Positions 8,279-58,552 of a stretch of DNA of 64,000 nt are shown here, in pieces. The stretch spans positions 434,001-498,000 of the forward strand of contig NW_026570256.1 in NCBI RefSeq assembly GCF_019649055.1, read 5' to 3'. Every line of letters starts with the position of its first letter. The stretch's first letter is position 1. The DNA comes from Paramacrobiotus metropolitanus. Its lineage: Eukaryota > Tardigrada > Eutardigrada > Parachela > Macrobiotidae. Position numbers and translations under genes: made by a program. The notes under the pieces are model-generated. The model saw only the letters and a list, made by a program, of their open reading frames with translations, did not search any database and had not been told where the DNA came from.

Positions 8279-11200
8279 ATGAAGACAGAACTCTTTGTTT
8301 TATTTTGTTTTTTGGTCGCCGCGGTATTTTTCGATCCAGCATCAGCGATTGCGGACAATGAAGACGTAGAGATAACGGAAGGTAAGCTCAGTTTATGGAC
8401 TTGTTCGGTTAAATTCAGCCGGGCAGCTTTCCTTAGATAATTTGGAAAATGCATGCACAAGAAGGCGCAGCGATTTAGCGTGTGAGCTAGATTTAAGCAG
8501 AGAAAATAAATTTTTTCGGTCTTGTGCCATCAGTTTTTAATGCAATCTATCCACACAAAAAACGGAAACGTTTTTGTTTCTGTCGAAGTTTCTTTGGTCT
8601 GATCAAAAGCCAGCGGGTAATTTTAATTCAGCTAATCAAAATTCTTTATTTGAACTGACCGTGGAAACCAGAAAAAGCGGACGCGAAGCCGAAGCTTTTC
8701 TTGTACGGTGCATGGTGACAGTAAAATATTTATTAAATATTTTACGCTCCGAACCGTTTGCCGGAGCGTTTGCCGAAAGCCTTATTATTAATACCGCACA
8801 AATATCCTTATTGGAAAATCGCCTGAATAGAGCCGTGTGACGCCACACGCGATTATCTCGTACGTCGTCACCGGTGCACTTCTGTAAAAATCAGACACCC
8901 AATTTCGTGTGTTTCCTGTTTCTCAGTTAGGAGACATTCTCTGCGCTCTGGTCGCTTATCAATGTGATGGTCAGCGACCTTTGGCAGACACCCTAATCAT
9001 AATGCACCTTTAAATTAGCTGGTCAATAAACTCAACGCTCTTATCACACTCTTTCGTATTGTGAACGATGAGACAGACGTCTTCATCAACTTTATTATAT
9101 GCGAACGTTCTTATTTTTAGATCTTTTCAACACACCACTCAGCTTTTCGGACGTAAACGCTATTGCCAAAACCGGACCTCGGCTATGGCCCAACCCCACC
9201 GCCATCCCTTATTACATGAGCACGTATAGCCTTAGTAAGTACACAGAATAAGTTGTTCTATCGTAACGGTTTTCTAAAACGCAAATTTTTTCTATTCAAG
9301 TATATGTATGTCGTATTATTTATATCCGCAGAAGAGGCACTGCAGTCAGCAGTTTCGATTAATTTTTAAATGCTATTATATTTATCACTAGTTTATAACT
9401 CGAACAATAATACATTACTAGAGTAGTACATTGATATCATTACCAATTTATTAGGTTTAGCTCGCGTTCAAGTTGCTGTACAACTCATACAGTTATTGAA
9501 ATACAAAGTACGTAGTAGACTTATTTATGGCATAGGACGATACATATTTTTCGGCCAGCTGTGTGTAAAACGTACTTTATTTGCACAGATCAGACAGAAC
9601 AGCAAGTGGTTTTGAAAACTCTTCGCACAATGGAGAGAAGGACGAAAGGCTGCATCTTGTTCAAGCCCAGAACAAATGAAACTGACTACCTCTACTTTCA
9701 AGGCAGCAGCACCGGAAAGTACGTCACGATTCTTCTAGACTTTATAAGCCCGTATTAAAAGGCACCAAGCGTAACTATTTTATACGAGTACTTATATCCC
9801 GCAGGTGCAGTACGGACCTTGGAAGAACAGGCGGTTATCAAGATGTTAACCTGGGAAGTCCGTCGTATTTATCATCCTATTACACTAGCCCATGCTTCAG
9901 CCCAGGTGACATCCAGATGGTAATCATGCGTGCTCTAGGATTCGACTACGAACACAAGCGCCCAGATCGTGACCAGTATGTGGAAGTACGCAACAGCAGC
10001 ATTGACAGTGACTATTTTTACTCTTCCTATGCGATCAATCCAAATATGTACACATTTGGAACCAAGTACGATTACGAATCCATCCTGCACTACTTCACGT
10101 GGGCTAACGCTCTGGGACGAAATCCTGGCATGATAGCCAGAAAAGGCCTCACAGCACGAATGGGGAGAAGAAAGAAACTCAGTCCGACAGACGTTGCAAA
10201 GATCATGCTTGCCTATAACTGCCCGCCAAACGTTACTCGCGGCACAAAACAGCCTAATGCTGACGACGACTTCCCCAAGTTCTCCCTTGAAAAAATGACC
10301 GACGAGGAGTGTGGCGCACAGTTCAACCGCTATTGCAAATCCGACATCACCACTACATTCAACTGCACCGACCGCACTGATTTCCGGATTGTTTGCCGGT
10401 CAAACGCATCGCTGAACATACTTGCGCGAATGGCAGTGGATATGGCTGAACCACCGCTGCGAATGGTTTCCATGGATTTGGAAGAACAGCTGATTGTTAA
10501 ATACTCTTTTGCGCCAATACAACGCCAAGTCGTCAAGCTACAGCTGCGCAACTGCACCACGGAGCGCGTGACATCGAGGTTGGTCGATCTTAATTTCACC
10601 AGTATGCTGGATTTTCAACTGTACGACGCTCGCAATTTGGTCATTGTTAAGAAGGATTTTACCACCTCCAAGCGGCTGCGAATAGTCATATTTTACAACA
10701 CCACCATAAAAACCATGCAACAAGAAACTTTTACCGATTTGCCAAACCTGCAGATACTGTCACTGGAAGCGCTGTTTGAGGACCAAAAATACTACAATTT
10801 TGACCAGTCTTTCCGAAGCTTCTTGCAGAATCTTCACTGCAGCTGCGAGTTTGCTTGGTATCGTTCATGGTGGCGCAAGAATAAAAAGTTGCGGATGCGT
10901 GCCCAAATCGGCGATATATATTCCTTCGATGGTCGGTACTCGGATGAAGTCTTCGATAGCTCTGGATTCGGCAAGGAGGATCTCTATCATCCTGTAAATT
11001 GTCGCGCTGATCCGTTTCCTTTCGGCACGGAATGGATTAATTACTATACACAAATTGATTACTCGGTTAACGAGCCGCCTTGCGATGCGTCAATTATGCA
11101 CGGGAGCAACGCAGTCACTACGGCCAAAATTACAATGGTCACGAAATCGCCATCAACTACAAAAACCACATCGTCCGTCATCTTTTCTTCTACCGGTGAG

Positions 11201-11380
11201 CCAGTTCCTGCAGAAACCGTTGCATCAGACAGCATTAATTCTACGAACGAATCGATTCCCCTGGAAAGCTCAACCACAGCTAACAACAGTTCTCCCAACG
11301 AAACGATTCCTGAACAAACCATGGCACCAGTGAACGACCCTTCTACAAACGAACCGCTTCCTACAACGGCGTCCGAATAA
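8279..11380 (+). CDS. Gene B: pseudo-astacin with LRR-type C-terminal half (all zinc ligands of the HExxH motif lost)
   Basis: Exons 8279-8381, 9121-9234, 9589-9718 and 9805-11380 join in frame to about 640 residues. Signal peptide MKTELFVLFCFLVAAVFF; exon 2 LWPNPTAIPYYMS; exon 3 TLRTMERRTKGCILFKPRT. In exon 4 the zinc motif HExxHxxGFxHExxRPDRD reads MVIMRALGFDYEHKRPDRD. Met154, Val155, Arg158 and Tyr164 replace the three His and the catalytic Glu, while GF and RPDRD remain. The Met-turn is ILHY. The rest is conserved: the four-Cys module, LRR-like segments, the LRRCT-like NLHCSCEFAWYRSWW cap, and a Thr/Ser-rich tail with repeated NE-x-P motifs. There is no transmembrane helix, so it is probably secreted. 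The long open frame argues for a retained pseudoenzyme rather than decay. In-frame ATGs also lie at 8222 and 8261; 8279 gives a first exon like its paralogues. A late AATAAA lies at 11818. Confidence 0.85.
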
Positions 11381-12932: not shown

Positions 12933-15900
12933 ATGGGAACAATTTCTTTAAGCGTACTTCATCGCTTTTCCGTGTATAGATGGATTTTAATAAATTTTCT
13001 TTTATTTACTGCTGTAGTCTTTGACACCACGGCAGCAATAGCTGATGAAAACGAGAATGTGGAGATAACCGCTGGTAAGTTAACTACATATTAGAGGTAA
13101 GAAACGAATTCTCCTAACATTTTTTATCATTGGGTCTTGATTAGCACAAGCCAGTCAAACCGGAGAAATTAGTGATGGTGAAATTACTTATGCAGTCAAG
13201 AAATCATAAAACATAAGGATTATGCTGCAGTATATCCGTACATTTTTGTTTACAGACATTTTCATCAGCCCGGTCAAATATTCGGACCCAAATGCCGATT
13301 GGAGAACTGGCCTCAAATTATGGCCGAACCGTACAGCTATTCCTTATTGGATCAGCAGTGAATTTGGTAAGGAATAATTAACGCAAAGCGTTTCAGGCAT
13401 CCGGTAAAGTTGCTGCGGTATTACTGTTCCGGGCGTCTCGGTTGCGCAGGCAAAATATGGCAAAACTACATGCGTAAAATACTAAAGGAATGTACGACCG
13501 TAGTACGCGCTCGAGGCGACCTTTTGCCGCGTTATTGATTGTGCATATGATTTCACACTTCCAACGTGTTTAACCACAGATAAATCACAGAAGCGAGTGA
13601 TTTGGAAAGCTCTTCGCATTATGGAACGGAAGACTGGAGGTTGTATTTTGTTTAAACTCCGAACAAACGAAATCGACTATATCTACATTTCGCCCATATA
13701 TGCCTCGAAGTACGTCGCTCATTCGCTTCGCCAAATAAAATTGTTGCGTGTCAGTGTATTATTCCGTAACGGCGTTCGATAACTAATTTAGCGTTTGATA
13801 TAATCTTTACGCTAGCCAATAAATTTTGCGTTACTTCACGGTTCAGTACAATCTGGCCAATGGAAGTTATACGTACTTAACGTAAGTACGAGGCGTGTGT
13901 CCCTTGCTTAGATAGAGCACATTTACCTTACCATACTAAGATAACTGTGCCCGTGTTGTGCAGCGCTGTCAACCACCCAAAGATGGCAACGTCAGGGAGA
14001 ATTTGAAAAATCTGTTGAATGAGCCGTTGATAACTTCAATTGCTAACATCTCGTGAATGTGGGAACAAAACTGTTCCAGGAATATCTCAAAAGATGTGGA
14101 AAAAATTCACAAGTTTTTTGATACCAAGTAAGTCAGGATTTAGAGCGACTGAAATAAATTAGAGCCATTTCTGTTTCCCATAGACATAGCATAGTAAGTA
14201 TTACGTTGAAGGGGTCCACGAAGAGATCCTATAGTGTGTCTACGAGAAACTCAAAAAGGCTGCACCTTTTTTCAGTTGCTCTAAACCTATATTACTTGGT
14301 ATCAAATATCTTGTGAATTTTTTCTGCATCTTTTGAGATATTGCTTGAACAGTTTTGTTCCCACATTCACGAGATGTGAGCAATTGAAGTTATCAACGGC
14401 TGAATCAACACATTTTTCAAATTCGCCCTAGCGTTGCCATCTCTGGGTGGTTGACAGCGCTGCACATTGAGTGCACAACACGGACACAGTTATCTAAGTA
14501 TGGTAAGGTAAATGTGCTCTATCTAAGTAAGGGACACACGCCTCGTATTGTAATATTTATAATATTTATGGCGTTAGGTGCTCTTCTGAAACTATTGGAG
14601 GGAAAGGCGGTGGCTCTCAGTACATTTATCTGGCTATACCTGGTTTATTCTCATCAGCATCGTGCATGGACACAGGAAGAATCCAGCATGAGATCCTGCA
14701 TGCCCTAGGCTTTGACCACGAACACAAGCGCCCCGACCGGGACCAGTATGTTGACGTGCGCCATGCCAACATCAACTACGACCTCTTGACCGATTTTGAC
14801 TTCCGGTTAGACAGTTCCATCCACACCTTCGGGATCAAGTATGACTATCAGTCCATTCTTCACTACAGCGCATTTGATGCCAGTACTACCGGCAATCGCC
14901 GCCCAGCTATGGTGCCAAAACAAGGCCTTATTATCCGCGCGGGAAAACAAGCGGGTTTAAGCCCAGCCGATATTGCGAAAGTCCTGACCGCCTATCAGTG
15001 TGCACTAAACATCGTCGCCACGCATAAAGAGAACGGAATGAGCGATGACGATTTTCCCAATTTTTCTTTGGAGCCAATGGGCGAAGACGAGTGTGGCGCG
15101 CAGTTCAATCGCTACTGCCAATCTGACGTCTCCACAATATCCAACTGCTTAAAACGGTTGGATTATCGTATTGTCTGCCGCTCAAATGCGTCCGTTGCGA
15201 TTCTCGAGCGAATGGCGTTGGATATGGCAGAGAAGCCGCTGAGGCTGGTATCCATAAACGCGGAAGAGGAACTGGTTGCCAAGTACTCGTTCACGCCCAT
15301 AAAACGACAAGTCCTGAAATTACAGTTACATAACTGCACCACTGAACGCGTGACGTCCCGGTTGAACGAACTGAATTTTACCAACCTGCTGCATTTTGAA
15401 CTTTCCGACTGCTACAACTTGACTATCGAAAGAAATGATTTCACGATTTTCCGACGGCTGCGAATAATTTTATCAATAGTACAGTTAATGTACTGCAACC
15501 GGGTACATTTACGGATTTACCCAGCCTGCAAATACTGTCTTTGGAAGCGCTGTCGGAGAGCCAAAAGAACTATAATTTTCAACCGGATTACCGCTCGTTT
15601 TTGCAAAAACTTCACTGCGGTTGCGAGTTGGCTTGGTATCGCGCCTGGTGGCGGAGCAATAAAACGCTGCGCCTTAGAGTTGAGGTTGGCGAATTGCATT
15701 CATTCGACGGACGTTATCTCAATGAATTTTTCGAAAACGCTGCGTTTGGCAGAGAGGATCTTTATCATCCTGTGAACTGCCTCGCGGATCCGTTTCCTCT
15801 CGGCACAGAGTGGATTAATTACTACGTTAACACTGAGTATTCGGTTAACGAGCCGAACTGCGAGAAATCAGCAGGCTACGAGAGTAGCACTAGCCCCGCG

Positions 15901-15996
15901 GTGATCACAACATCATATTCTACCGTTCAACCACCACTTGCAACATCTGTGATGTTGGCCAGTTTCTCTTCTGCTGACCCGGTTTACACCGCGTAA
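12933..15996 (+). pseudogene. Gene C: astacin-LRR gene with a frameshift in the LRR region
   Basis: Exons 12933-13074, 13256-13366, 13580-13709 and 14578-15996 carry signal peptide (ILINFLLFTAVVF), propeptide (ADENENVEITA), LWPNRTAIPYWISSEF, ALRIMERKTGGCILFKLRT, and an intact active site HEILHALGFDHEHKRPDRD (H165, E166, H169, H175) with ILHY Met-turn. At about 15470-15474 the frame breaks: compared with gene G, four bases are missing between RLRII and the NSTVN segment. Reading on in the old frame gives roughly 100 foreign residues and a stop at 15775. The original frame continues from the break as NVLQPGTFTDLPSLQILSLE and through the LRRCT-like cap (LHCGCELAWYRAWW) to a stop at 15996, without other stops. 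The astacin domain would still be made. It belongs to the same subtype as B and G (CGAQFNRYC, GTEWI, no transmembrane helix). Intron 3 holds a foldback element. AATAAA lies at 16207. Confidence 0.8.
13889..14545. mobile_element. Foldback (long-TIR) DNA transposon in intron 3 of gene C
   Basis: A 657 bp element made almost wholly of two inverted arms of about 280 bp, roughly 90% alike, around a loop of about 80 nt. Both ends begin CGAGGCGTGTGTCCCTT and both are flanked by TA (13887-13888 and 14546-14547), consistent with a Tc1/mariner-type target. No transposase frame is present, so it is non-autonomous. It ends 32 nt before the exon 4 acceptor. The arms would form a very stable hairpin in the pre-mRNA. 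Confidence 0.85.
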
Positions 15997-17696: not shown

Positions 17697-20355
17697 ATGG
17701 GTAGGAAATTACACTCCCTATCATATCTGTTAATTCCGTTCTTTTATTTGAACAACGCAAAGGCAGTCTCGGACGAGGATGGAAATGTTGTAATAACAGA
17801 AGGTACAGTTGTGTATGAATAATACCTGCCTTTCCGTTAATATAATTATACGAGTATACCAATACGCGCATCGGCTTTGCTCACCGGTGCCAGTCAATTG
17901 GATTAATATTTTTTTCCGCAACCGTTTGTAAATCCGGCGACACTTAGAAGTGTCGCATCAATTTGACCGCTTATTATCAGTTTTTTATGAAGAATGTCGT
18001 TGTGCTAGAATTCTGATACTATACCTAGACCAAAATTTTAATGAAAATAAAATTTGGCATAATATCATAATTAATCCTCATTGTGCAGAAAATTCATTGT
18101 ACAAAGTTGACCTTTCCAGAATTTTGCTGTGCACGGATTTTGTTACATTAGCTACAAAGGTTTTTTGTGTTTGTTTAATATCATTTGGATTACTGCAAAA
18201 TCAGTTTTTCGTGAGGCAGTTTAACAATTGTGTATTTCGCAGATCTTTTTCAAACGCCTATCAAATATGTGGACGATCCAAGTATTAACCTATGGCCGAA
18301 TCGCACCGCCATCCCTTATGTGATCAGCGAAATTTTTAGTAAGCATAAAAAAAATTTTATGGACTTGGCATAGTTCAACAGTCTTATAACCAACCTTAAA
18401 TTTCATTCTCGCTATTCGATATTAAGGATGAGTTGCCATCTCCTTTTATATGATTTCTGTAGTACGAGTATTAAAATGTCCAAACCATGTGAAAAAAATT
18501 TGAATATAATAAATTCATAATTCAGGTGCATCAGAACAGCAAGCGATTGTTAAGGCTCTCCGCATCATGGAGAAGAAAACAGGAGGATGTATTTTGTTCA
18601 AGCCTAAGACCAGTGAAGATGATTATATCTACTTCTTTGGAAACTTTCTGGACAAGTGAGTTTAGGCTCTAGTATCTTTAACCAACAACGACTACCTGAC
18701 ACCAACGTTTCTGTACCAGATGCGACTCAAAAGTAGGCAGAGTAGGCGGGAGACAGTATGTTGATCTGGCCCGGCCCATACACCTTACTTCAACATCATG
18801 TATAAACACGGGAAGGATCCAGCACGAGCTGATGCACGCTTTGGGCTTTCGTCACGAACAACAACGCCCCGACCGCGACCAGTATGTCGACGTACGCAGC
18901 GGAAACGTAATACCGGCAGATTACCCTGATAATTTCGTTAGAATATCCTCGATAAACACTTTTGGACTCAAGTACGATTACCATTCCGTAATGCATTATG
19001 ATGCCTTCGCTTTCGCCGTATTCAATAACAGTCCTGTGTTGATCCCCAAAAAAGGCCTAGTGGTCCGTATGGGTCAACAATTGGCCATGACCCCGAGCGA
19101 TGTTGCAAAGATAGCATTGACCTATAAATGCCCTTTAACCATTCGTCGCGTCAGCCAAACGGCCCGTAAAAGGGAGAACTTCCCAAATTTCTCACTGGAA
19201 CCGATAGAGGGAGATCGGTGCCAGGTGCAGTTTAACGATTACTGTGCGCCCGGTCAAATCACGCAAGAGAACTGCAGACGCCGGAATTATTTTCATATTC
19301 GTTGCCGGTCGGACGCTCCGGTGCCGGTTCTAGAAAGTATGACGGCTGTTATGGCCGATAAGACTGTGCGACCGGTATCCATAGATGTCGACGAACGACT
19401 CATTTCCAGTTATTCCTTCGAGCCGATTCGGATCCAAGTTCTGAAGCTGCAGATACACAATTGCACCACCGAACGCGTGACCCTGAGACTTAAGCAGCTC
19501 AATTTTGTCAACTTACTACACTTAGAACTTCACCACTGCCACAATCTGATTATTGAGAAGACGGACATTTCGGTATTCCAACAGTTGCGGATAACTACTT
19601 TTCGCAACAGTACCGTCCATGTTATGCAACCGGGAACATTTACCGATTTGCCAGAAATGCGGATAATTTCTTTAGAAGCATTATCGGCCACCCAGAAAAA
19701 CCAAAATTTCGAAGCTCCTTATCGAGAATTTCTCCGCCGTTTGCACTGCAGCTGTGAATTTAGCTGGTATCGATCATGGTGGCGGAGCAATAAGCAATTA
19801 CGTCTAAAAGCGCAAATAGAGGAATTGTATTCGTTCGATGGACCTACCTCTGCCCTACTTTGCAATGATGAATTTAGCAAAGAAGGTTTGTTTCATCCAA
19901 TCAACTGTAGCGATAAACCGTTTCCTCTCAGCACGGAGTGGATCAGCTATTACACGCAAATTGAATATTCTATAAACGAGCCACTGTGCAACCAAACACT
20001 CACGGTTACGTCTTCGACCGCTATGTTTTCGACATTGATACTGGACCCCACTGCAACAGGGGCCCCAACGTTCCCTTTGGCTCCCTTCTCCACGACGCTT
20101 TTACCACGGAAAATCGGGCCTCTCGCACTGTCGCCACAAAGACTAAGGTCGCAATCGATCCCGGGTATCTTGGTAGGCGCTCTGTTTGGGATCGCCACTC
20201 TGTTTACAGCTATTACTTTATTAATTAAGAATGGACGATGCAGAACCTGGGTTTCATCCTTGCGAAATAGCAGCTTATCATTCAGGGTTTTCAGAAACAG
20301 AGAACCAAGTAGTGCCGATGGTATCGCGATAGTTTCGAGCGGAGTAAGCTCTTGA
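17697..20355 (+). CDS. Gene D: membrane-anchored astacin-LRR metalloprotease
   Basis: Exons 17697-17802, 18243-18338, 18526-18655 and 18720-20355 give 655 residues in one frame. Signal peptide GRKLHSLSYLLIPFFYL; propeptide AVSDEDGNVVITE; exon 2 is shorter than usual (DLFQTPIKYVDDPSINLWP). Astacin core: HELMHALGFRHEQQRPDRD, with H146, H150 and H156 as zinc ligands, E147 as the general base, and SVMHY Met-turn (M202, Y204); the domain ends at C248. Then come the C-x7-C-x9-C-x9-C module (C278 to C306), LRR-like segments (about 345-440), the LRRCT-like cap (RRLHCSCEFSWYRSWW; C454, C456, C507, C534), a Pro/Thr stalk, one transmembrane helix (about 592-613, ILVGALFGIATLFTAITLLI) and a basic 42-residue tail. 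Expected topology is type I with the protease outside the cell. An upstream in-frame ATG at 17634 gives a worse signal peptide. Intron 3 is only 64 nt. Confidence 0.88.
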
Positions 20356-24500: not shown

Positions 24501-24588
24501 GCCCGTTGTCTGCCACGTCGACCACGCGGCCGTAGCGCAGTCGACCGTCGCGGCCCAGAACGTGCACACCGAATCCATCGCATATCAT
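21573..24588 (-). CDS. F-box protein gene, four exons
   Basis: Read on the minus strand: exon 1 24588-24078, exon 2 23614-23403, exon 3 22686-21808, exon 4 21743-21573, joining in frame to about 590 residues. The N-terminal part (about 1-150) is a beta-rich, SH3/Tudor-like stretch with ETPRGPWIWVPGE and RTDVVPIDRIR. Exon 2 has VQRWNTGTLWYACKGIRLVD. Exon 3 opens with an F-box, GLPVELWREVFSELD followed by RLRIVCSTWN (about 265-298), the segment that docks on Skp1 in SCF ubiquitin ligases. It continues into a Cys/His-containing C-terminal region with an acidic run (DLDDDEEEEL). Donors are GTAACC, GTAAGG and GTAAGG. The acceptor of exon 2 (ACACAG at 23615) is weak and was chosen because it fits the phase. 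I recognise the domain, not the orthologue. The target-binding part has no repeats I can name. The gene interrupts the astacin array on the opposite strand. Confidence 0.7.
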
Positions 24589-24791
24589 CTTGGCTGTGCT
24601 GGGACTGGGAGATCAACGAAAGCGTCTTCCACTCTGCGCGCATTAAAATAAGCTAACCTCAAGAGTGAAACAGGGTCGTGAATCGTTACCGATCAAAGTG
24701 TCAATATGGAATTAAGTACGTCATTACGAAATACGAGGGATGCGGTATTGAGTAGTGTTAGAGGCACGACAGCCTGCGTGATAGATACGCC

Positions 24792-26286: not shown

Positions 26287-26690
26287 TTGTAAAGGCCCGC
26301 GCTGAAGCGCTGAGTCTGAGTCTGAACCCTAAAAGGCTGAGTCTGACTACTGAAAGGCTGAGTCTGAGTACTAAAAAGCTGAGTCTGACTATTAAAGTGC
26401 TGAGTGTTCCTGAGACTGCTAAAGTAATATCTCGATAACTTTTAACTCTTGACCGGAAATATGCGCCATATGGTCCAGCGAATCCCCATATCACAAGCAA
26501 CGCTAAAACAACGTACAGTAGTGTAAAACTGCAAGATTTTATTTGACAACAACCCATGCGGTAATCGAATACGGGAAATTTGTACTAGTGTAACTGCAGC
26601 AACACGAATGTTGAAAAGAAAGAATTAACCATAATTATAGCCGCTATTCAACATTTCCGGCCAAAATAAAACTAAATCTATTTTAAATAA
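26287..26690. repeat. 400-bp dispersed repeat, inverted with 39640-40055
   Basis: Starts with GGCCCGCGCTGAAGCGCTGA, continues with CTGAGTCTGA tandem units, then unique sequence (ATGCGCCATATGGTCCAGCG) and ends at TTCCGGCCAAAATAAAA. The whole block recurs as reverse complement at 39640-40055. Confidence 0.85.
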
Positions 26691-39639: not shown

Positions 39640-40055
39640 TAAATTTAATTTTATTTTGGCCGGAAATGTCTAATAGGGCTACAATTATGGTTAATTCTTT
39701 TGTTCTTTCAACATTCGTGTTGCTGCAAGTTATACTCGCAAAAACGTACAGGTGCACGTCCTGTATTTGATTCTGAATGGGTTTGTGTCCAATTAAAATG
39801 TTGCAGTTGCACTTGTACATTACTTAAGTTGCATGTAATACGGGGATTCGCTGGACCATATGGCGCATATTTCCAGTCAAGAGTTAAATGTTATCGAGAT
39901 ATTACTTAAGTAGTCTTAGGAACACTCAGCATTTTAATAGTCAGACTCAGCCTTTTAGTACTCAGACTCAGCCTTTCAGTAGTCAGACTCAGCCTTTTAG
40001 GGGTCAGACTCAGACTCAGACTCAGCGCTTCAGCGCGGGCCATTTGTAAAACGTG
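39640..40055. repeat. 400-bp dispersed repeat, inverted with 26287-26690
   Basis: Reverse-complement partner 13 kb away. The two copies differ in the number of CTGAGTCTGA units and by a small indel in the unique part. Confidence 0.85.
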
Positions 40056-41442: not shown

Positions 41443-43616
41443 ATGAAAATAAGGTTCAGTTCACTCCTCCCTGCCGTACTAACTGCCCTACTGAATGCTG
41501 TCGCCGTGATGGCAGTATCCGATGAAAGCGGTAACGTCCAGATAACAGCAGGTAAGCTGTCGTCTTCGCAAATTTGCTGTTAATTATTATCCTGCCAAAA
41601 TAAACCTAATAACTGACTTTGCAGATCTTTTTCTGCAGCCGGGCAACTTTTCAGATGTAAATTATCAAGCGGGAACCGGCCCCCGGCTGTGGTCAAATCG
41701 CACAGCCATTCCTTATTATATTAGCAGCGATTTTGGTGAGGAGACGATAATTTGTTCTTCTAACTGTGGTTATATTTTGATACCTGTAGTTTTTAAATAT
41801 CCCGAATTTCCGCAATTTTTTCACGGTATTATTAATTTAGATCTGTCAGAAAAGCAAATGATCCTTAAGACTCTTCGCATCATGGAGAAAAAGACAGAAG
41901 GATGCATTTTATTCAACGAAAGAAGCGCCGAACCTGACTATATCTATTTTGCCGCAAACCATCAGGGCCCATGTGAGTTTAGGGCAGCAGCATTTGCATC
42001 TTTTAATAAACCGCTAATTGCTAAATCGTTTTCTAATTCCTTTCATCAGATGCGACTCAAGCATCGGTAGAAGAGGCGGGATGCAATACATCCATCTGGG
42101 CCACCCCGGACCTTTTACCTCATCATCATGTATGGACACGGGAAGTATCCAGCATGAAGTCATCCATACTTTGGGCTTTTATCACGAGCAACAGCGTCCT
42201 GATCGTGACCATTATGTCAACGTCCGCAGCGCCCACATTAAACCGGACGAGTTGGATGTAAATTTCGCTATAACGTCGTCATCGTACACTTTTGGAACTA
42301 AGTACGACTACCATTCCGTTATGCAATACGATGCCTTCGGTTTTGCCTTATCCAATACGATTCCCGGGTTGGTTCCTAAAAGAGGCCTTATTGTTCGCAT
42401 GGGTCAACAGCTGGGTATGAGTCCAAGCGATATTGCGAGGATATCATTGGCGTACAAATGTCCCTTAACTGTTATTCTTAACACCATAACAACTTCCCAA
42501 ATCGAAAATTTTCCAAATTTCTCTCTGGAGCCGATGACGAGCGATCAGTGCCAGTTGCAGTTTAACGATTATTGTGAATCGGACATAACCACGCAATGGA
42601 ATTGCACGAATCGAAGGGATTTACGTGTTCATTGCCAGGCGGATGCGGATGTGTTGGTGCTGGAACAAATGGCGGTTGGCATGGCAAAGCCACCGTTGCG
42701 GCCGGCATCCCTGGATGTAGGAGAGCAACTTATTGCCAGTTATTCGTTCGGGCCAATCCGAACCCAAATCCTTAAGCTGCAGCTGCGCAAGTGCATCTCC
42801 AGTCGAGTGACAAAAAGACTAAACGAGCTGAATTTCGTTAATTTACTACACTTTGAACTCCACCACTGCCACAACCTGATTATCGAGAGGACGGACTTTA
42901 CGGTATCCCCGCGGTTGCGGATAATAACCTTTTACAACACCACGGTGGACATTCTGCAGCCCGTCACCTTTACGGATTTATCAGAACTGAGCATTCTTTC
43001 TTTGGAAGCATTATCGGATAGTCAGAAAAACTATAATTTCGAGCCATCCTATCGTGATTACTTGCGCCGTCTGCACTGCAGCTGTGAATTCGCTTGGTAT
43101 CGCGCATGGTGGAAATCCAATGCAGCGTTACGCCTCAGAGTTCAGACAGGAGAATTGTATTCCTTCGAGGGACCTTTTATTGGCACTTTCTTGAATAGCG
43201 ATGGGTTTAACAAAGAAGATGTGTTCCATCCCATCGACTGCAATGCAGATCCGTTTCCTCTTAGCACAGAATGGATTGACTACTACTCGCAACTTGATTA
43301 CTCTATCAACGAACCCCACTGCAGCCAAGCACCCACTGCCACAACTTCTGCAGCGAGGTTATCAACTTTGATAGTGAACCCCATTACAACAACCGCTCCG
43401 ACTTTCACTCCAGCCGCGGTTATCACGACGACTTTACCGTGGACGGTTGGACCCCTCGAACTGTCCAAAAATAACTTAAGCCCCGGATCTATCGGGGGCA
43501 TCATGGTAGCCGTGCTTTTTGGCGTGGGCATTGTCCTTTATGCGGCTTCGGTGTTAATTAAGGAAAATCGATTTAAAGCGTGCTGGACATCGTTGCAAAA
43601 TGATGGATTAATATAA
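41443..43616 (+). CDS. Gene E: membrane-anchored astacin-LRR metalloprotease with an odd exon-3 donor
   Basis: Exons 41443-41551, 41625-41735, 41841 to about 41976, and 42050-43616. Signal peptide KIRFSSLLPAVLTALLNAVAV; LWSNRTAIPYYISSDF; TLRIMEKKTEGCILFNERS; active site HEVIHTLGFYHEQQRPDRD and a Met-turn of SVMQY. The Tyr ligand is kept and the His before it is Gln. The C-terminal half is complete: C-x7-C-x9-C-x9-C, LRR-like segments, LHCSCEFAWYRAWW cap, a Thr-rich stalk, a transmembrane helix (IMVAVLFGVGIVLYAASVLI) and a short basic tail. The consensus-looking donor of intron 3 (GTGAGT at 41973) makes exon 3 two bases too long for the family phase. The frame closes only if the weaker GTTTAG at 41977 is used, giving 640 residues and an extra Cys at the junction. 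AATAAA lies at 43888. Introns 1 to 3 are short (about 70-105 nt). Confidence 0.82.
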
Positions 43617-47853: not shown

Positions 47854-50443
47854 ATGGTAGAGTATTGGTCCCTGTTTTATCTTATAATCGCTCCCCTGCT
47901 CTTGAACACCGCTAAAGCAGTATCTGACGAAGATGGAGATGTGCTTATAACAACAGGTATGCACATGTGTTTTCTCATTTAACTAATCAACAGTTCTGTG
48001 GGTCCATACTACAAGAACAATCAAAGTATAAATTTTCATCTGGCTACTGCAACACCAAATATGCAAATTTCAACGAGCGCCATGTTGGGTTTTCCGAATT
48101 TTTTATGCTAGAATTTTATTTGCCCTGGGCTGAAGTACTGTATATCAAATTCTGTAATGCCCGGGTTTCCATATGACAAAACCTTGTGACCTAAAATGAC
48201 CTTTCTAATAATCGTTTCCATACGAGTAAGTTCTAATAATTAATCAGTTACCAATATTATTCCGTGACGTCCAGTAAGTATTTGCTCGATGTACGGCTTT
48301 AATGCATCCAGGTTTTCTTCAGACCTTCCAGCAAAATTAATGCGTTTTTGGCAGATATTTTTCAAACTCCTGGCAACGTTTCTGACGGAAATGCGAGGGG
48401 AGATACAGGCCCTGCTCTCTGGCCAACTCGCACTGCCATTCCTTATATCATAAGCCCATTATTCAGTAAGGACTAAGGACACGCATTGACGATTCCCGAT
48501 CACATCGGTCAAACAATCCGACAAACTAACTTTTACTTCTACATTTTTTTCAGTTCCGCATTGCTTCTTTGGTTTCAGGTTGCTTCAGCATAGCACAACG
48601 CAAACTACCTATTTGTAATAAATTTCTTATTTAGGTTTACCAGAACAACTGACGATTCTTAAGGCTCTTCGCATCATGGAGAGAAAGACAAGGGGATGTG
48701 TAATGTTCAAGCCTAAAAGCGACGAAAATGATTATATTTTCTTTTCCGCCAACACCTACGGCAAGTGAGTTAAGCCTAAAATGCCTTCATCAGAAACGAG
48801 CCTCCTTTGATTACTATCGAATTTTCTCCATTAGATGCGACTCACAAGTTGGCAGATCCGGCGGCCTGCAGTACATTCATCTGGCCCACCCCGGTGACTA
48901 TTCTTCAACATCATGTATGGATACCGGAAGCATCCAGCATGAGGTCATGCACACTTTGGGCTTCCGTCACGAGCAGAAACGTCCGGACCGCGAACAGTAT
49001 GTCGATGTCCGCAGCGACAACATTGACGACGAAACGGCTGATAATGACTTCGCCATCAGCTCGTTAATGTTCACGTATGGAATAAAATACGATTACCATT
49101 CCATTTTGCATTACGAAGCCTTTGCTGGCGCCCTATCCCCTCAAGTTCCCGTGATTGTACCGAAAAGAGGCCTGATTGTTCGTATGGGATTGGAACTGCA
49201 AATGACCCCGAGCGATGTCGCTAAAATAATCTTGGCCTACCAATGTCCGTTAGTCATTTCTCCCGGCAGTACAACCGGCAAAAGCGAGAATTTCCCAAAT
49301 TTCTCCCTCGATCCAATGACGGAAGACCAGTGCCAGCAACAGTTTAACAAATACTGCGGATCTGACCTAACCATGTGGAACAATTGCACGAGGCGAAAGG
49401 ATCTTCGTATTCGTTGCTTATCGAATGCACCGTTATCAGTGCTTGAAAGAATGGCCGTGAACTTGGCGAAGGAACCGCTGCGATTAGCATCTATGGAAGT
49501 GGAAGAACGACTTCTGGCAATTTACTCCTTCAAGCCGATTCAAACCCAAGTCCTGAAGCTGCAGCTATGCAACTGCTTCACAGCCCGCGTGACACGAAGA
49601 CTGATCACGCTGAATTTTGAAAATTTAATACATTTTGAACTTTACCACTGCCACAATCTGATTATCGAAAAGGCGGACTTTACAATGTATCAACGGCTGC
49701 GGATAATCACCTTTTATAACACCACCGTCAACGCTCTGCAATCTGGCTCATTTGCGGATTTGCCGGAACTTCGGATCCTTTCATTGGAAGCACTCTCCAA
49801 CAGCCAAAAAAATTACAATTTTGAACCAACCTTTCGAGAGTATCTGCAACGTCTGCACTGTAGTTGTGAATTCGCTTGGTATCGATCATGGTGGCGCAAC
49901 AGTAAAGCGTTGCGACTCAGAGTTCAAACAGGGGAGCTGTATTCTTTCGAAGGACCGTCTGAAGGAACATTCTTTAACAGCGATCCGTTTATTAAAGAGG
50001 ACTTATATCATCCGATAAATTGTCATGCCGATCCGTTTCCGCTGAGCACAGAGTGGATCAACTATTACACGCAAATTGAGTACTCTGTCAACGAACCACT
50101 GTGCAACCAAACATCTGCTACATCTTCTGCAGCTAAACTTTCAACCCGGCTGGTAACTCCAGCTACAACTAGCGCACCGTCACCGGCAGCCAACGGGTCT
50201 GAACCGACTCATCTAGCGGTCACGCAAAGTAAATTAAACCCGGGATCGGTAACGGGTATTGTTATAGGCGTACTTATGGGCATGGCTCTTCTAATCGCCG
50301 CTATTTCCGCATTTATTATGAAAAACCGATGCAGAGCGTGGCAGGCAACATTACGAAACGATGGACTATCGGGAAGGCTCGTTAGGAATGGAGGAACCGA
50401 TGCCGGCGAAGGAATCGCATTTGGTGACGCAACAACACCCTAA
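47854..50443 (+). CDS. Gene F: membrane-anchored astacin-LRR metalloprotease
   Basis: Exons 47854-47956, 48355-48465, 48635-48764 and 48835-50443 join to 650 residues. Signal peptide VEYWSLFYLIIAPLLLNTA, propeptide VSDEDGDVLITT, then LWPTRTAIPYIIS and ALRIMERKTRGCVMFKPKS. Active site HEVMHTLGFRHEQKRPDRE (H150, E151, H154, H160); the Met-turn is SILHY with Leu for Met. The four-Cys module, LRR-like segments and RLHCSCEFAWYRSWW cap follow. A Ser/Thr/Ala stalk leads to a transmembrane helix (GIVIGVLMGMALLIAAISAF) and a tail of about 50 residues with basic and then acidic residues. The splice phases match D (exon 2 ends A, exon 3 opens GT). A TATA-like box lies 68-58 nt upstream of the ATG, and AATAAA at 50605. 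All residues needed for zinc binding and catalysis except the structural Met are present. Confidence 0.88.
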
Positions 50444-51707: not shown

Positions 51708-54386
51708 ATGGATAAAATTCATAAATCATTTTGCCGCGCCTTAGTTACCGTCGTATTCGTCAGTACGGCTGTAGCAATTTCGCAGGAAAGTGGTGATGTT
51801 GAGATAACAGAAGGTAAATCACCGGTTCCAACTTCTCTGGAGCTGAAACAATTAGCCTTAGCAGTCAAAAATAATTTATCGCACTTTATCCTCAGTAAGC
51901 AAAAAATTGCGAATTCCCGTGCATACTGTCGTACAATTTTCCGACTTTCCAGTTGAGTACATGTGCGCTCCAATGGCTCCATTAACATAACTCGTACCAT
52001 ACAGCTTGTGCAGAGATCACGTACTCGGTAACCCCGTACTCGTAAGTAACAATCACAGCAGAAATAAAGCGGTCCTTGAAGGTGCCAAAATGAACAGGTT
52101 AATGTGGGCTGATTAATGGGGATTACAGATAGTGTGATTGCTTTTCAGATCTTTTCTATCAGCCTGGCAACTTTTTTGACGCAAATGCCGAAGCAGGAAC
52201 CGGCGCTAAATTGTGGCCAGATCGCACAGCAATTCCTTACTCCATAAGCAGTGACTTCGGTGAGTAGACTGCAATGGATGTGCAAATATAACGTGATGTT
52301 GCAACTAATTGTACGTGCTGGTGATTCGGCACCCTTGAAGGTATTCCTTAATATAAATGCAGGTTTAACTTAACATTGTGCTACGCCTTATTTGAATGCA
52401 AGTCTGTTTTCTACAATGCAGGTTTGCGTAAGAAAAACTGTCACTGGAAGCGGCCTTTAATTGTAAACGAAAACCCAAATTACTGAGCTCGCAAATTTAA
52501 CAGGAATTTGCAAACTTAACCTGACCGATAAGGCGACATATGTATCGAAAAAATTAAGGAGAAAAGGCGTAAATATGAGATACAGCGTTGAAATTCAGTT
52601 CATGTTTTTACTCAGGCTTTAGCATGCTTTTAATTTCGTTATCACTCGCTGCAGGAAAATCACATCAAGATTTGATTTTGAAAGCTCTTCGGATTATGGA
52701 GAAAAAGACGAATGACTGTATCTCATTCAAAGCCAGAACGACTGAGTTTGACTACATCTACTTCCGGCCAAGTTATTTTGGCGAGTAAGTTCTAAACAAC
52801 TATGTTTAAAAAAATAAAACTGAACACTTGATGCACAATTTTTAGCTCCCTAATGACTCTTTACTCATATTCCCCTTTTTATTCTCAGTTGCGCGTCGGC
52901 ACTTGGACAGCAGGGCTCGTACCAGACCATCCACCTAGCAGTACCCGGCTTATTCTCATCCGCATCGTGTATGTACATTGGAAGGATACAGCACGAAGTG
53001 ATGCATGCGCTCGGTTTCGATCACGAACAGAAACGCCCGGATCGAGACCAATACATTGACGTAAACAGCGCAAACATTGGTTACGATGAATACAGACGAG
53101 ACTTCGCTATCAATAAAACAATGTACACTTTCGGAACCAAGTACGACTACCATTCTATCCTGCACTACTATGCGTTTCAAGCGTCCGAGAACATAACCCG
53201 TCCGAGCATGGTACCCAAGAAAGGGCTGATTGTTCGCATGGGCCAAGCTGTGCGCATGAGCCCGACGGATGTCGCAAAAATCATGATTGCCTACAAGTGC
53301 CCTTTTACTGTTGCCCCCGCAATTAAAAAAACGGCTTCCGGTGATGATTTTCCAAATTTTTCCCTGGAACCAATGACTGCCGATGAATGTGGTGCGCAGT
53401 TCAATCGTTATTGCCAATCAGACCTGACCACCAAAGACAACTGCACAGACCGTCGGGACTACCGTATTGTCTGCCGGTCCAACGCATCAGTTGCCGTTTT
53501 GGAGCGGATGACTATGGATATGGCGGAACCGCCGCTGCGACTGGCGTCCATCAGTGTAGAGGAGGAACTAATCGCTAAATATTCATTCACACCCATCCAA
53601 CGCCACGTCCTGAAACTCCAGTTATGGAATTGCACCACAGATCGTGTGACCTCTCGGTTGCTGAAACTCAATTTCACGAACCTGCTGCATTTGGAAGTTT
53701 CCAGCTGTTACAACTTGGTTGTGGAAAAGGCGGACTTCACAATTTCTCAACAGCTGCGAATGATTCTGCTCTACAATAGTACCATTAAATCTTTGCAACA
53801 TGGTGCCTTTACGGACCTGCCGCAACTTCAAATACTTTCCCTGGAAGCTTTTAGTGATGACCAGAAGAACTACAAATTTGAGTCAGGATATCGAAATTAC
53901 CTTCGTAATCTTCATTGCGGCTGTGAGTTTGCATGGTATCGATCGTGGTGGCGCGCCAATCGAAAATTCAGAATAAAAGTGGAAGTCGGGGAGCTGTACT
54001 CGTTCGAAGGACCTATATCTGGAACATTTTTCAGCAGTGACGAATTAAACAGAGAAGATCTGTATCATCCGATCAACTGTACCGCTGATCCGTTTCCGCT
54101 TAGTACAGAATGGATTACTTACTACACGCAAACTGATTATTCGGTTAACGAGCCGATTTGTAATGCATCGTTACATTCTGTCATGCGACCAGCTACTGTG
54201 GACGCTGCTATGTCCACTACAAAGCTGCCATTACAGAGACATATTCCGGTGAATTTTACCAGCGGAATTCGTTTTGTAACGCCTTCATCGCGAGCAGCAA
54301 AGGATGATGCCACTGAGAATTCAACCAGCACAAAAAATGAAATTACATATATTGACCAGCGAGACGCCGGTAGCGTTGAAAAGTGA
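51708..54386 (+). CDS. Gene G: secreted-type astacin-LRR metalloprotease
   Basis: Exons 51708-51813, 52149-52259, 52655-52784 and 52889-54386 give 614 residues. Signal peptide KIHKSFCRALVTVVFVSTAVA; propeptide ISQESGDVEITE; LWPDRTAIPYSISSDF; ALRIMEKKTNDCISFKART. The segment before the active site departs from other members (CASALGQQGSYQTIHLAVPG) but keeps its length. The active site HEVMHALGFDHEQKRPDRD is intact (H151, E152, H155, H161), with a SILHY Met-turn. The C-terminal half holds the four-Cys module (CGAQFNRYC start), LRR-like segments and NLHCGCEFAWYRSWW cap. The last 70 residues are Thr/Ser/Asn-rich and charged, with no transmembrane helix, so the product should be secreted. AATAAA follows at 54467. 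It is closest to B and C in sequence, although it lies among membrane-type genes. Confidence 0.87.
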
Positions 54387-54472: not shown

Positions 54473-54949
54473 AAATTGAGCACATATTGTGCAGAGAGTT
54501 TGCGAAATGGTTTTTTTTCTTCAGTTATTGTTGTTAATCAGTTGTTGCTGTTGACAACTTGTTACTGAATGACTTTGGTCGGTGAACTGAGACATGCACT
54601 GCAGTGTACGTACGGATAGTTGTTAAAGAACGGATGTTCATTTGCGGAAAATAAAACAAACAATCATTGACAGATTGAGTGACAGACTTTTAACATTGTT
54701 TGATAATCACATGAGCTTAACTAATTGACACCGCCGCGTTCTTCAGTTTATTGACTGTAAAATTGGCTTTCTCTTATCAAATTTTTACTAGAGTTTGAAT
54801 TAATATAGCTTGATTATAAGCGGAGCTTGATTTTTCAATCGCCAAGGCATGAACTATCTAGTATTTTTACCGTACAAAGAACAAGCGGTATTTTTGTGGC
54901 GGTAAAAGCAGTGCTGCAGATAGTCAGTTTCCTTTGCGCGGGAGTATAG

Positions 54950-55210
54950 TGTAGCGATAGAAATTAGAGATGTACCGCCAGTAGGAGTGTTAACTGCCTT
55001 TCTCTACTGATTATTGGTTGTTGTGTTATGAAGATCACCTGATTTTCCTACTTTACCGACCGCATCTCACGGTCAGAAACATCTTGAAATTAGTCTTGCT
55101 GCAGCTTGCCCCGAATCTTGCTCCGCGCCTTCCGCGCTTCTTGCTATTCCCGCGCTTCTTGCCCACGCATATGCATTCTTGCTCCTCATCTTATTTTGCT
55201 CGCTGAATCT
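54950..55210. repeat. 260-bp dispersed repeat, inverted with 35140-35425
   Basis: Partner of 35140-35425, with CTTGCTCCGCG / CCGCGCTTCTTGC tandem words and the CCGACCGCATCTCACGGTCA hairpin. Confidence 0.8.
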
Positions 55211-55227
55211 TGCTTTGTGCACTTGTT

Positions 55228-55440
55228 AATAAACACCTGCGATGACCTTGTGTTGTGTTGCGTAATCGCCATGGGATGATCGTGCATCTCCCTCCATTGT
55301 CACCCTGTAAACGGTATTCAGCTTCCGGTCAGCATCGCTGCCGACTCTGCCAGTCTTTCGCACACTACATGTAACAACCGACAGATCGTGGTAAGGAAGA
55401 TTTACCAACCCACTAGAACAGCAGTCAACCCGGGTGCTGT
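55228..55440. repeat. 210-bp dispersed repeat, inverted with 32280-32490
   Basis: Plus-orientation copy. It directly abuts the 54950-55210 repeat, so two families that lie 3 kb apart elsewhere are joined here. Confidence 0.75.
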
Positions 55441-55822: not shown

Positions 55823-56097
55823 TTGTAGGAAATCATGCAGTGCGATGCGTGTTCACAAAAAAACAGCTATTACCGACAAGATACTGTTTGTATGTGTACT
55901 AGTACAGTTGCGCTCAATACGCACATTCAGCACCAAGAAAACAAAAATGTTGTAATAACTAATCTAGGAAAGGAGAAGTGTAAACCGTGGCACTTCACCA
56001 ATAACCATGTCGCAGAGCTGATCTAATTTATCTGAGATGTCAAACTGTGTTCCGCAGAGCAAATTAAAGAGGATTTGTGTAGCTCAAATTTTTTTCC

Positions 56098-58552
56098 ATG
56101 GATAGGATGTATGGCTTTGGACTTCGTATCGCACTGGTGGTGGCACTAAATTTGAAAATCCTTAGGGCAGCATCCGATGAAAGCGGCAACCTTAAGGTAA
56201 CAGCAGGTACGTAGCCGCAGCCATAAATCACATTCATTTATCCTGAAAACTAACTCTGAAAAGAGTCTCTTGTAGATCTCTTCTATCAACCGGGCATCTT
56301 CTCAGACAAAAATGTCGAATCGGGAACTGGCCCAAGTTTGTGGCCAGATCGGAAAGCGATTCCGTATTACATCAGCAGCGAATTTGGCGAGTTATCGAAT
56401 AATTTTTATGAGTACAACTGTAGAACAGCTTGCTGCAATTAGTGCTATAAATAAATAAGGCGAACACGGCGTATAATTATATTTGTACGATGTGGTGACA
56501 AAGTAAGTTAAATCCCGGCACAACGTTTTGAAATTTCATTCCGAACGAGTGCGCGCGTGAAATGGAAGGAAACGTTTTTGCAGAATTTCGCCATGAATTT
56601 TTGTTATAAAATGATCCAACCAATAGAATATAATATTAAATAAATTTATCTTTCAGATGTACCAGAACAGCATGCGATTCTTCAAGCTCTTCGTACCACG
56701 GAAAAAATTACAGGAGGCTGTATTTTTTTCAAGCCTAGAACCGACGAGAGTGACTTTATCTACTTTCTCGGAAATTTTCAGGACTTGTGGGTTAAAATCC
56801 TTGCACCATTCATTTTTATCAACAAAGATAAACCGTACATAAATGTCCTTCTTTAGATGCGACTCAAGCGTGGGAAGACGTGGAGGGTTGCAGTACATTC
56901 ATTTGGCCCGCGCCGGAATTTTTTCCACAAGATCATGTTTGGACACGGGAAGCATCCAGCACGAGGTCATGCACACTTTGGGCTTTTACCACGAGCATGA
57001 ACGCCCGGACCGTGATCACTATATCAACATACGCTACGACAACATCCAGTTTGACCAATACAATAATTTCGCTGTCGAATCGTCCATGTACACTTTCGGA
57101 GTCAAATATGACTACCATTCCGTTGTGCAGTATGAGGCCTTCGGTGATCCCATAAACCCTCTGATCCCTGTGATTGTACCAAAAACAGGTCTGGTTGTTC
57201 GTATGGGACGAGATAAGCGGATGAGCCCGAGCGATATCGCTAAGATTGCCTTGGCCTACAAATGCCCGCTAACCATTTTTCCCGGCAGCTTAACGGCCTC
57301 GGAAAGCCAAAACTTTCCAAATTTCTCCCTTGAGCCGTTGACGGAAGACCAGTGTCAGCTGCAGTTCAACGCCTACTGCGCGTCTGACCTAACCACGCAG
57401 ACAACCTGTGGAGAGCGAAATTATTTTCGTGTTGTCTGCCAGTCAGATGCAGCGGTGCCGGTGCTGGAAAGTATGGCCTTTGATATGGCCAAAGATCTTT
57501 TACGACCGGCGTCCATCCAGGTAGACGAACAAATTATCGACGAATATTTATTTGCACCGATTTCGACACAAGTCTTGAAGCTGCAGTTACGCAACTGCTT
57601 CACGGACCGCGTGACGCACAGACTCAACCAGCTGAACTTTGTTAATTTATTGCATTTTGAACTTCACCACTGTCACGACCTGGTCGTCCAAAAAACAGAC
57701 TTTATGCTAACTCCACGGCTGCGAATAATAATCCTTTACAACAGCACCGTCAGCGTCTTGGAGCCTGGCTCTTTTACGGATTTGTCAGAACTGCGGGTTC
57801 TTTCCTTGGAAGCCTTATCGGACAGCCAGAAAAACTACAATTTCGAGCCGACCTATCGTGATTACTTGCGCCGTCTGCACTGCAGCTGTAAATTTGCCGG
57901 ATATCGATCATGGTGGCGAAGTAATAAGCAACTGCGCTTAAGAGTGAAGAAGGAAGAAATATATTCTTTCGATGGGCCTACCTTTTCCCTCTTCAGTAAC
58001 GATGACTTTAACAAAGAAGACCTGTATCATCCCATCAACTGTGATGCTGAACCGTTCCCTCTCAGCACTGAGTGGATCAACTATTATGCACACGTTGAAT
58101 ACTCCATCAACGACCCACAATGTCGCCTAACTCCCACTGTAACATCCACTGCAGCTCCATATACAACTCTGATAGTAAATCCCACTACAGCTTCCACTAC
58201 AACACCCACTGCAGCTGCTCGTACATACACAACTCTGATAGTAAATTCTACTACAACGACCGCCTCGGCGACTACTGACGCTGTTGTTCCCACAACGCTT
58301 TCACCGTGGAAAATTCGGCCTTTAACACTGGCGCAAAATAAATTAAGCGCCGGATCTGTCACGGGTATCGTGCTTGGTGTACTTTTGGGCGTTTTGATTG
58401 TGAGTGTGGGTACTGTGGCGGTAATTGCGAAAGGGCGGTGTGCAGCTTGGTGGACATCCTTGCGCAATGGTGAATCAATATGGAGAGCATTTAGGAATAG
58501 AAAAGCCAACGAGGACTACGGCGTCGCATTTACTAATGAAATCAGCTCTTAA
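56098..58552 (+). CDS. Gene H: membrane-anchored astacin-LRR metalloprotease with a GC-AG intron
   Basis: Exons 56098-56206, 56276-56386, 56657-56786 and 56857-58552 give 681 residues, the longest member. Signal peptide FGLRIALVVALNL; propeptide ASDESGNLKVTA; LWPDRKAIPYYISSEF; ALRTTEKITGGCIFFKPRT. The active site HEVMHTLGFYHEHERPDRD is intact (H152, E153, H156, H162), but the Met-turn reads SVVQY, so the structural Met and the neighbouring His are both replaced. Cap: RLHCSCKFAGYRSWW. The stalk is extended by a short duplication (TTLIVNPTT and TTLIVNSTT). Transmembrane helix GIVLGVLLGVLIVSVGTVAV, then a basic tail. Intron 2 begins GCGAGT rather than GT. The only nearby GT (56391) is in the wrong phase. 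AATAAA overlaps the stop region (58553), with another at 58974. Confidence 0.86.

What the first reader, a model, noticed from the sequence alone, without database searches (positions are those of the whole stretch)
8279..58552. Tandem family joining an astacin protease to a cysteine module, LRR-like repeats, an LRRCT cap and a membrane anchor
Known astacins carry MAM, TRAF, EGF, CUB, ShK or TSP1 modules. Here one long exon encodes the zinc core followed by a four-Cys module, LRR-like segments, an LRRCT-like cap, a Thr/Ser stalk and in four genes a transmembrane helix. The arrangement is kept in seven long copies, so it is not a misassembly of two genes. A protease fused to a recognition-type ectodomain at the cell surface suggests targeted shedding or matrix cutting (inference).
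Basis: partly seen in the sequence, partly recalled or inferred. Interest (0 to 1): 0.85.

Follow-up and report, generated by a model that had tools for sequence, protein, structure and literature searches.

The report
Tandem protease genes carrying recognition domains
A row of duplicated genes in this window joins, in one protein, a zinc protease of the astacin family to a leucine-rich-repeat binding domain and in some copies a membrane anchor, which might let the enzyme be aimed at particular targets.

Summary
Seven long tandem copies (A-G), plus two cut by the window edges, encode a signal-peptide-like start, short propeptide, astacin domain, four-Cys module, 3-4 leucine-rich repeats (LRR), an LRRCT-like cap and a Thr/Ser-rich tail; C, D, E and G add a transmembrane helix. 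The astacin C-half and all that follows lie in one exon; B has a frameshift there. A profile of the post-astacin part matched 48 solved-structure sequences at E<=1, all LRR proteins (5 at E<=0.001; best Toll-like receptor 13, 7e-7). AlphaFold models were poor, so the LRR fold rests on sequence; the cap is less certain and the four-Cys module has no clear relative. I read it as a new variant of a known kind: membrane-anchored or secreted astacins with an LRR docking module (inferred). Substrate, expression and species are unknown. A helminth survey with over 100 astacin partner domains could not be read.

The parts
8279..11380 (+). Copy A: exons 8279-8381, 9121-9234, 9589-9718, 9805-11380; complete ORF, no TM helix, Thr/Ser-rich tail; zinc motif replaced (MVIMRALGFDY)
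   Evidence: spliced model with GT-AG introns; zinc site; no TM
9911..9973 (+). Copy A degenerate zinc-binding site (all three His and the catalytic Glu replaced)
12933..15996 (+). Copy B: exon 1 about 12933-13074, exon 2 about 13256-13366, exon 3 about 13580-13709, exon 4 14578-15996 with a frameshift near 15469-15475; zinc site intact, no TM helix. Exons 1-3 placed by eye, not modelled in a script
17697..20355 (+). Copy C: exons 17697-17802, 18243-18338, 18526-18655, 18720-20355; TM helix near 20167-20223; SVMHY Met-turn
41443..43616 (+). Copy D: exons 41443-41551, 41625-41735, 41841-41976 (weak donor GTTTAG), 42050-43616; TM helix near 43500-43556; shortened cytoplasmic tail
47854..50443 (+). 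Copy E: exons 47854-47956, 48355-48465, 48635-48764, 48835-50443; TM helix near 50261-50317
51708..54386 (+). Copy F: exons 51708-51813, 52149-52259, 52655-52784, 52889-54386; no TM helix
56098..58552 (+). Copy G: exons 56098-56206, 56276-56386 (GC donor, my choice), 56657-56786, 56857-58552; TM helix near 58370-58426
52890..53303 (+). Copy F, C-terminal half of the astacin domain (zinc motif within 52986-53048)
   Evidence: PF01400
53388..53474 (+). Copy F, four-Cys module (no clear relative)
53607..53900 (+). Copy F, leucine-rich repeats, units starting at 53607, 53682, 53754 and 53826 (the last irregular and running into the cap)
   Evidence: unit borders 3 and 4 drawn by eye
53862..54161 (+). 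Copy F, LRRCT-like cap (LHCGCEFAWYRSWW ... C ... C) with the residues before it
   Evidence: not found alone
368..676 (-). Edge copy H: exons 1 and 2 only, minus strand, rest off the window
63690..64000 (+). Edge copy I: exon 2 about 63829-63939, exon 1 aberrant, rest off the window

Best explanation
A tandem family of secreted and membrane-anchored astacin metalloproteases whose C-terminal ectodomain is a short extracellular LRR domain with an LRRCT-like cap. SHOWN by sequence: astacin core with intact zinc motif in 6 of 7 copies, LRR homology, fusion within one exon, a TM-type hydrophobic helix in four copies, a hydrophobic N-terminal start (judged by eye) and a propeptide with a conserved Asp. 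INFERRED: the enzyme is secreted as a zymogen, the propeptide Asp holds the zinc until cleavage, and the LRR face docks a conserved partner (a matrix or membrane protein) so that the protease cuts it or its neighbours, at the cell surface for C, D, E and G and in the extracellular space for the A/B/F type. Copy A would be a secreted pseudoprotease that keeps the docking module and may compete with or scaffold the active copies.
For: Astacin matches in 7 of 7 copies. All 48 PDB sequences matched by the post-astacin profile at E<=1 are LRR proteins. Complete 4-exon models in 6 copies. The propeptide Asp is kept in 9 of 9 copies: FSD, YSD, YVD, FSD, VSD, FFD, FSD in A-G, FSD in H, YLD in I; compare the FXGDI aspartate switch in PMC9848320 (passages). 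Mean pairwise identity over 21 pairs rises from 0.55 in the astacin C-half to 0.61 in the LRR and 0.64 in the cap part, median dN/dS 0.26, 0.22 and 0.17; leaving out copy A, the means of the 15 remaining pairs are 0.56 (astacin part) and 0.63 (LRR part), averaged by hand. Copy A's astacin branch is the longest of seven (0.80) while its LRR branch (0.32) is second to C (0.37). TM helices. Pseudopeptidases that regulate active relatives are known in metallopeptidase families (abstract of PMC11266112 in the listing).
Against: No expression, substrate or activity data. dS is saturated in 4 to 10 of 21 pairs in six of the seven regions (1 of 10 in the tail), those pairs are left out of the medians, and the LRR/astacin difference was not tested formally. 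The Met-turn Met is Leu in A, B, E, F and Val in G, so activity of those copies is not certain. No confident model of the LRR fold. How the LRR face lies to the active site is unknown.
Confidence: 0.5

Rival explanations
1. The LRR module is not a substrate-docking exosite but a dimerisation, inhibitor-binding or autoregulatory module, as parts of the meprin ectodomain are.
For: The LRR/cap part is kept even in the zinc-less copy A; LRR ectodomains often dimerise (recalled); PMC9848320 describes the meprin beta EGF domain as a hinge that moves the dimer upon inhibitor binding (passages).
Against: No direct evidence for any of these; sequence cannot separate them from docking.
Confidence: 0.25
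2. Digestive, hatching or moulting astacin expansion in which tandem copies raise dose, and the LRR part only helps secretion, stability or matrix retention.
For: Best solved relatives of the catalytic part are hatching-type enzymes 3vtg (High choriolytic enzyme 1) and 3lqb (3lqb named zebrafish hatching enzyme 1 in PMC9848320); tandem arrays are usual in such families (recalled); spider digestive fluids contain many astacins and, as separate proteins, LRR or leucine-rich proteins (passages of PMC5553785 and PMC5013568).
Against: A membrane anchor in four copies and strong constraint on the LRR part fit a bulk digestive role poorly.
Confidence: 0.15
3. Immune recognition family in which the LRR diversifies to follow pathogens or parasites.
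For: Tandem array with decay (B) and edge copies; LRR module.
Against: LRR and cap are the best conserved parts, median dN/dS 0.22 and 0.17; only stalk (0.52) and tail (0.74) are looser. Whole-region averages could hide a few diversifying sites; no site test was run.
Confidence: 0.07
4. The post-astacin part is not LRR but another leucine-rich solenoid such as a receptor L domain, or a lineage-specific fold.
For: Pfam LRR models stay below the gathering score; AF2 models are poor; the cap and the four-Cys module have no significant relative alone.
Against: All 48 profile matches are LRR proteins and none is an insulin-receptor-type L domain; a CxC...W cap follows the repeats as in LRRCT.
Confidence: 0.08

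Closest known systems
Meprin beta (astacin family M12A, vertebrates)
   Same: Astacin core followed by further ectodomains and a membrane anchor; type I membrane protease (TM layout recalled)
   Different: Meprins carry MAM, TRAF and EGF domains (PMC9848320), not found here by Pfam; here LRR and an LRRCT-like cap. PMC9848320 says that MAM/EGF astacins of other phyla are apparently not membrane bound (passage)
BMP1/Tolloid proteinases
   Same: Astacin core with C-terminal modules
   Different: CUB and EGF modules not found here; Tolloids have no TM helix (recalled)
Hatching-type astacins (3vtg High choriolytic enzyme 1; 3lqb)
   Same: Best-scoring solved relatives of the catalytic part, E 6.3e-25 and 4.9e-23
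   Different: Solved chains of about 200 residues, catalytic domain only; LRR part or membrane anchor in hatching enzymes not known to me
Extracellular LRR proteins with LRRCT caps (TLR13, LRRC4B, TrkC, chondroadherin, Slit2)
   Same: LRR units running into a cysteine cap; matched ranges cover both
   Different: These proteins carry no protease domain (recalled); here only 3-4 repeats, and a four-Cys module without clear relative in front

Membership tests
Astacin family M12A | HEXXHXXGXXHE zinc site followed by XXRXDRD | tested here: met
   Met in 6 of 7 copies, with DRE for DRD in copy E; not met in copy A (MVIMRALGFDYE)
Astacin family M12A | SIMHY Met-turn with zinc-binding Tyr | tested here: inconclusive
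   Tyr kept in 7 of 7; Met kept only in C and D, Leu in A, B, E, F, Val in G; His before Tyr is Gln in D and G
Astacin family M12A | Pfam PF01400 above gathering score | tested here: met
   7 of 7 copies, 80.5-115.2 bits against a cut-off of 22.5
Astacin family M12A | Propeptide with FXGDI aspartate switch | tested here: inconclusive
   Asp kept in 9 of 9 copies as F/Y-x-D (V-x-D in E), without the Gly; motif from PMC9848320
Extracellular LRR proteins | Tandem LxxLxLxx(N/C) units of 20-30 residues | tested here: met
   A loose regular expression finds units 1 and 2 in 6 of 7 copies and unit 1 only in A; it also gave one chance hit in each of A, D and G, and missed units 3 and 4. Profile matches only LRR proteins, 48 of 48 at E<=1
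Extracellular LRR proteins | Pfam LRR model above gathering score | tested here: not met
   Best 21.0 bits against 27; a detection threshold rather than a defining property
Extracellular LRR proteins | Solenoid of stacked parallel strands | tested here: inconclusive
   Strands at 80-84, 105-109, 129-133 in the second model, but pLDDT about 45-55 there; Foldseek has no match at E<=0.001
LRRCT-capped LRR proteins | C-terminal cap CxC...W...C...C closing the repeats | tested here: inconclusive
   Four Cys invariant in 7 of 7, the Trp after CxC is Gly in G; covered by LRR matches, not found alone
Meprins | MAM, TRAF and EGF domains | tested here: not met
   No such Pfam match
BMP1/Tolloid | CUB and EGF domains | tested here: not met
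   No such Pfam match
Active proteases | Measured peptidase activity | not testable with these tools
   Needs expression

The most novel reading that the evidence does not exclude
An undescribed class of LRR-guided astacins: cell-surface sheddases whose substrate is chosen by an LRR ectodomain, regulated by secreted siblings of the same cluster, one of which (A) has become a dedicated pseudoprotease that binds the same partner without cutting it.
Probability: 0.3. Interest if true: 0.75.

Novelty: new variant of a known kind. Interest (0 to 1): 0.55.

Why it matters
Astacins carry many kinds of C-terminal modules, and the list of about thirty entries in the 2023 review (PMC9848320, Figure 1 legend) has no LRR. 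If true, an astacin joined to an LRR receptor-type ectodomain would give an animal a way to aim a zinc protease with a very adaptable binding module, and would be an invertebrate counterpart (invertebrate origin inferred) of the membrane-bound meprins. The cluster also offers a natural comparison of copies with intact, Met-turn-altered and lost active sites that share one docking part.

Tried and rejected
Structure prediction: two AlphaFold jobs (exon 4 of E, and the post-astacin part of F, each with eight rows: six copies plus two pieces of B) gave mean pLDDT 35.2 and 39.5, probably because the alignment is so shallow. A Foldseek search of the second model gave 147 matches at E<=10 and none at E<=0.001; of the 50 rows shown, 47 are LRR proteins by title or by my own knowledge, with the chain assumed from the title in complexes; CtBP1 appears twice and one engineered protein has no fold named. 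I count this as weak support only.

Relatives elsewhere: scans of viral contigs and genome contigs with the post-astacin alignment confirmed none (229 and 69 stretches matched a pattern). These collections are not of animal genomes, so this says little about how widespread the family is. No genome is held for the window.

Module tests alone: the profile of the cap part gave two hits at E<=10, a transposase (0.24) and a sybody; the profile of the four-Cys module with what follows gave MgtC (0.12) and Glr1262. Single sequences of copy F: for the four-Cys module and what follows, all five hits at E<=10 are the DNA repair protein XPA (best 0.029); this does not persist in the family profile and I treat it as chance, but it is a result outside my reading. 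For the last repeats and cap, five hits at E<=10, three of them LRR proteins (VLR/TLR4 0.86, TLR13 0.89, LRRC4B 5.2) and none significant. Other Pfam matches below the gathering score: DUF4690 (best E 0.0015) and Podoplanin (0.01) over the stalk and TM helix, LRR_4, HTH_38, NDUF_B7, ADP_ribosyl_GH, Adeno_E3_CR2, MGC-24. Bacterial-type promoter scan of bases 1-2000, Rfam and tRNA scans gave nothing useful.

Misassembly rejected: the astacin/four-Cys junction lies inside one open exon in all seven copies. Diversifying immune LRR disfavoured.

Literature: ten searches. Five joined astacin with LRR terms: 4 papers; 205 papers holding two of three terms, 40 listed; 4; 17; 6; no listed title or abstract start describes an astacin-LRR protein. 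The others were. Passages only were read in PMC9848320 (with its abstract), PMC2824743, PMC11250803, PMC8195603, PMC4300403, PMC11304992, PMC11266112, PMC12167791, PMC5553785 and PMC5013568. Martin-Galiano and Sotillo 2022 was not read: I tried one DOI from memory that is not held. PMC2859557 on the Met-turn is not held.
Full report
WHAT IS THERE. The genes have introns with GT-AG ends (one GC donor as I modelled it), so the window is taken to be from a eukaryote, by its astacins most likely an animal (inference). Seven long copies of one gene lie in tandem on the plus strand: A, B, C between 8.3 and 20.4 kb and D, E, F, G between 41.4 and 58.6 kb. Edge copies lie at both ends: H on the minus strand and I on the plus strand. 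Six copies have complete four-exon models; B was placed by eye. Exon 1 codes a hydrophobic, signal-peptide-like start (no predictor was run), exon 2 the propeptide and the start of the mature enzyme, exon 3 the next part of the astacin N-half, and exon 4 the rest: astacin C-half with the zinc site, linker, four-Cys module, LRRs, LRRCT-like cap, Thr/Ser-rich stalk and, in C, D, E and G, a TM-type helix and a short tail with a shared RCxxWxxxLRN in C, E and G (alignment).

IS IT MORE THAN CHANCE. Pfam astacin matches in 7 of 7 copies. The post-astacin profile (six copies) matched 48 distinct PDB sequences at E<=1 and all are LRR proteins by name or by my knowledge; five reach E<=0.001: TLR13 at 7.1e-7, LGR4 twice (3.7e-4, 7.0e-4) and chondroadherin twice (5.7e-4, 6.1e-4). 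The full exon-4 profile matched 39 sequences at E<=1, 20 of the astacin family and 19 LRR proteins. In TLR13 the best stretch runs through the last repeats into the CxC...W cap. Pfam's own LRR models stay below threshold, so automatic annotation would probably call these proteins just astacins. No shuffled-profile control was run.

WHAT IS WEAK. A profile of the cap alone (seven copies) and one of the four-Cys module with what follows (six copies) found no LRR protein; the single four-Cys sequence of copy F drew only weak XPA hits (best 0.029). Two AlphaFold jobs gave poor models; in the second, strands recur at 80-84, 105-109 and 129-133, the 24-25 residue spacing expected for LRRs, but at pLDDT near 50. 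Foldseek's list is dominated by LRR proteins without any match at E<=0.001.

WHICH COPIES ARE WHOLE. B has a frameshift between its second and third repeat. D joins exon 3 to exon 4 in frame only with GTTTAG as donor; the expected GTGAGT would shift the frame, so D may be damaged, mis-assembled or spliced oddly. A keeps its whole ORF, but its zinc site reads MVIMRALGFDY where F has HEVMHALGFDH, several base changes and not one sequencing error. The Met-turn Met is Leu in A, B, E, F and Val in G; PMC9848320 gives SIMHY as the family motif (abstract and passages). Whether Leu or Val supports activity I could not check here.

HOW IT EVOLVES. Unrooted trees separate A, B, F from C, D, E, G in both the astacin and the LRR part; the split coincides with absence and presence of the TM helix. 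Mean pairwise identity over 21 pairs: astacin C-half 0.55, linker 0.46, four-Cys 0.56, LRR 0.61, cap 0.64, stalk 0.26; median dN/dS 0.26, 0.34, 0.30, 0.22, 0.17, 0.52, over the 11 to 17 pairs per region in which dS was not saturated. The C-terminal TM and tail part, 10 pairs, has identity 0.31 and median dN/dS 0.74. The LRR/cap part is thus the best kept; this holds without copy A too (0.63 against 0.56, my averages of 15 pairs). In A the astacin branch is 0.80, the longest of the seven, and the LRR branch 0.32, second to C (0.37): consistent with relaxed constraint on a dead protease while the docking part is kept. No formal test of this was run.

HOW IT MAY WORK. Best reading (inferred): secreted zymogen, Asp-latched, activated by propeptide removal, then held at the cell surface (C, D, E, G) or released (F, and A and B by type), with the LRR face binding a conserved partner. 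Astacins are known as shedders of membrane-bound substrates (PMC9848320, passage). Rival readings are dimerisation or inhibition through the LRR part, and a hatching, moulting or digestive role. In Drosophila the astacin Tolkin cleaves Slit (start of the abstract of PMC7648596 in the listings; that Slit is an LRR protein is recalled and fits), and spider digestive fluids contain astacins and leucine-rich or LRR proteins as separate molecules (passages): the two partners of this fusion meet elsewhere, which is a lead and no more.

WHAT IS KNOWN. The 2023 review lists additional domains of astacins in its Figure 1 legend (passages): LRR is not among them, and LRR and leucine-rich do not occur in its main text. 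It also says that MAM/EGF astacins of other phyla are apparently not membrane bound. C. elegans astacin subgroups have EGF, CUB, ShK/SXC or TSP1 domains or none (passages of PMC2824743). The review cites a helminth survey with more than 100 partner domains that I could not read, so the domain order may be listed there. I therefore call it a new variant of a known kind and claim no absence from print beyond the searches named in Tried and rejected.

Noticed in passing
26291-26683 and 39637-40044: A 0.4 kb inverted repeat pair (84% identical) with internal 21-base repeats flanks 13 kb between copies C and D. Possible large non-autonomous mobile element that split the array; target-site duplication not determined.
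   Followed up: partly
21772-22707 minus: ORF with an F-box (PF00646, E 1.5e-8) inside the array on the opposite strand; no PDB relative at E<=1.
   Followed up: partly
23947-24612 minus: 221-residue ORF without Pfam match. From memory only, it and the F-box ORF recall tardigrade proteins; untested, and the species is not known.
   Followed up: no
13887-14547: 660-base near-palindrome (84% identical to its own reverse complement) inside the third intron of copy B.
   Followed up: no
63732-63759: A 13-base direct duplication in exon 1 of edge copy I; the usual end of exon 1 (VSDESGNV..) is missing, so I may be damaged.
   Followed up: no
35148-35417 and 54947-55213; 32283-32498 and 55218-55439: Dispersed repeats in inverted orientation, 91% and 83% identical, perhaps remnants of mobile elements.
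   Followed up: no
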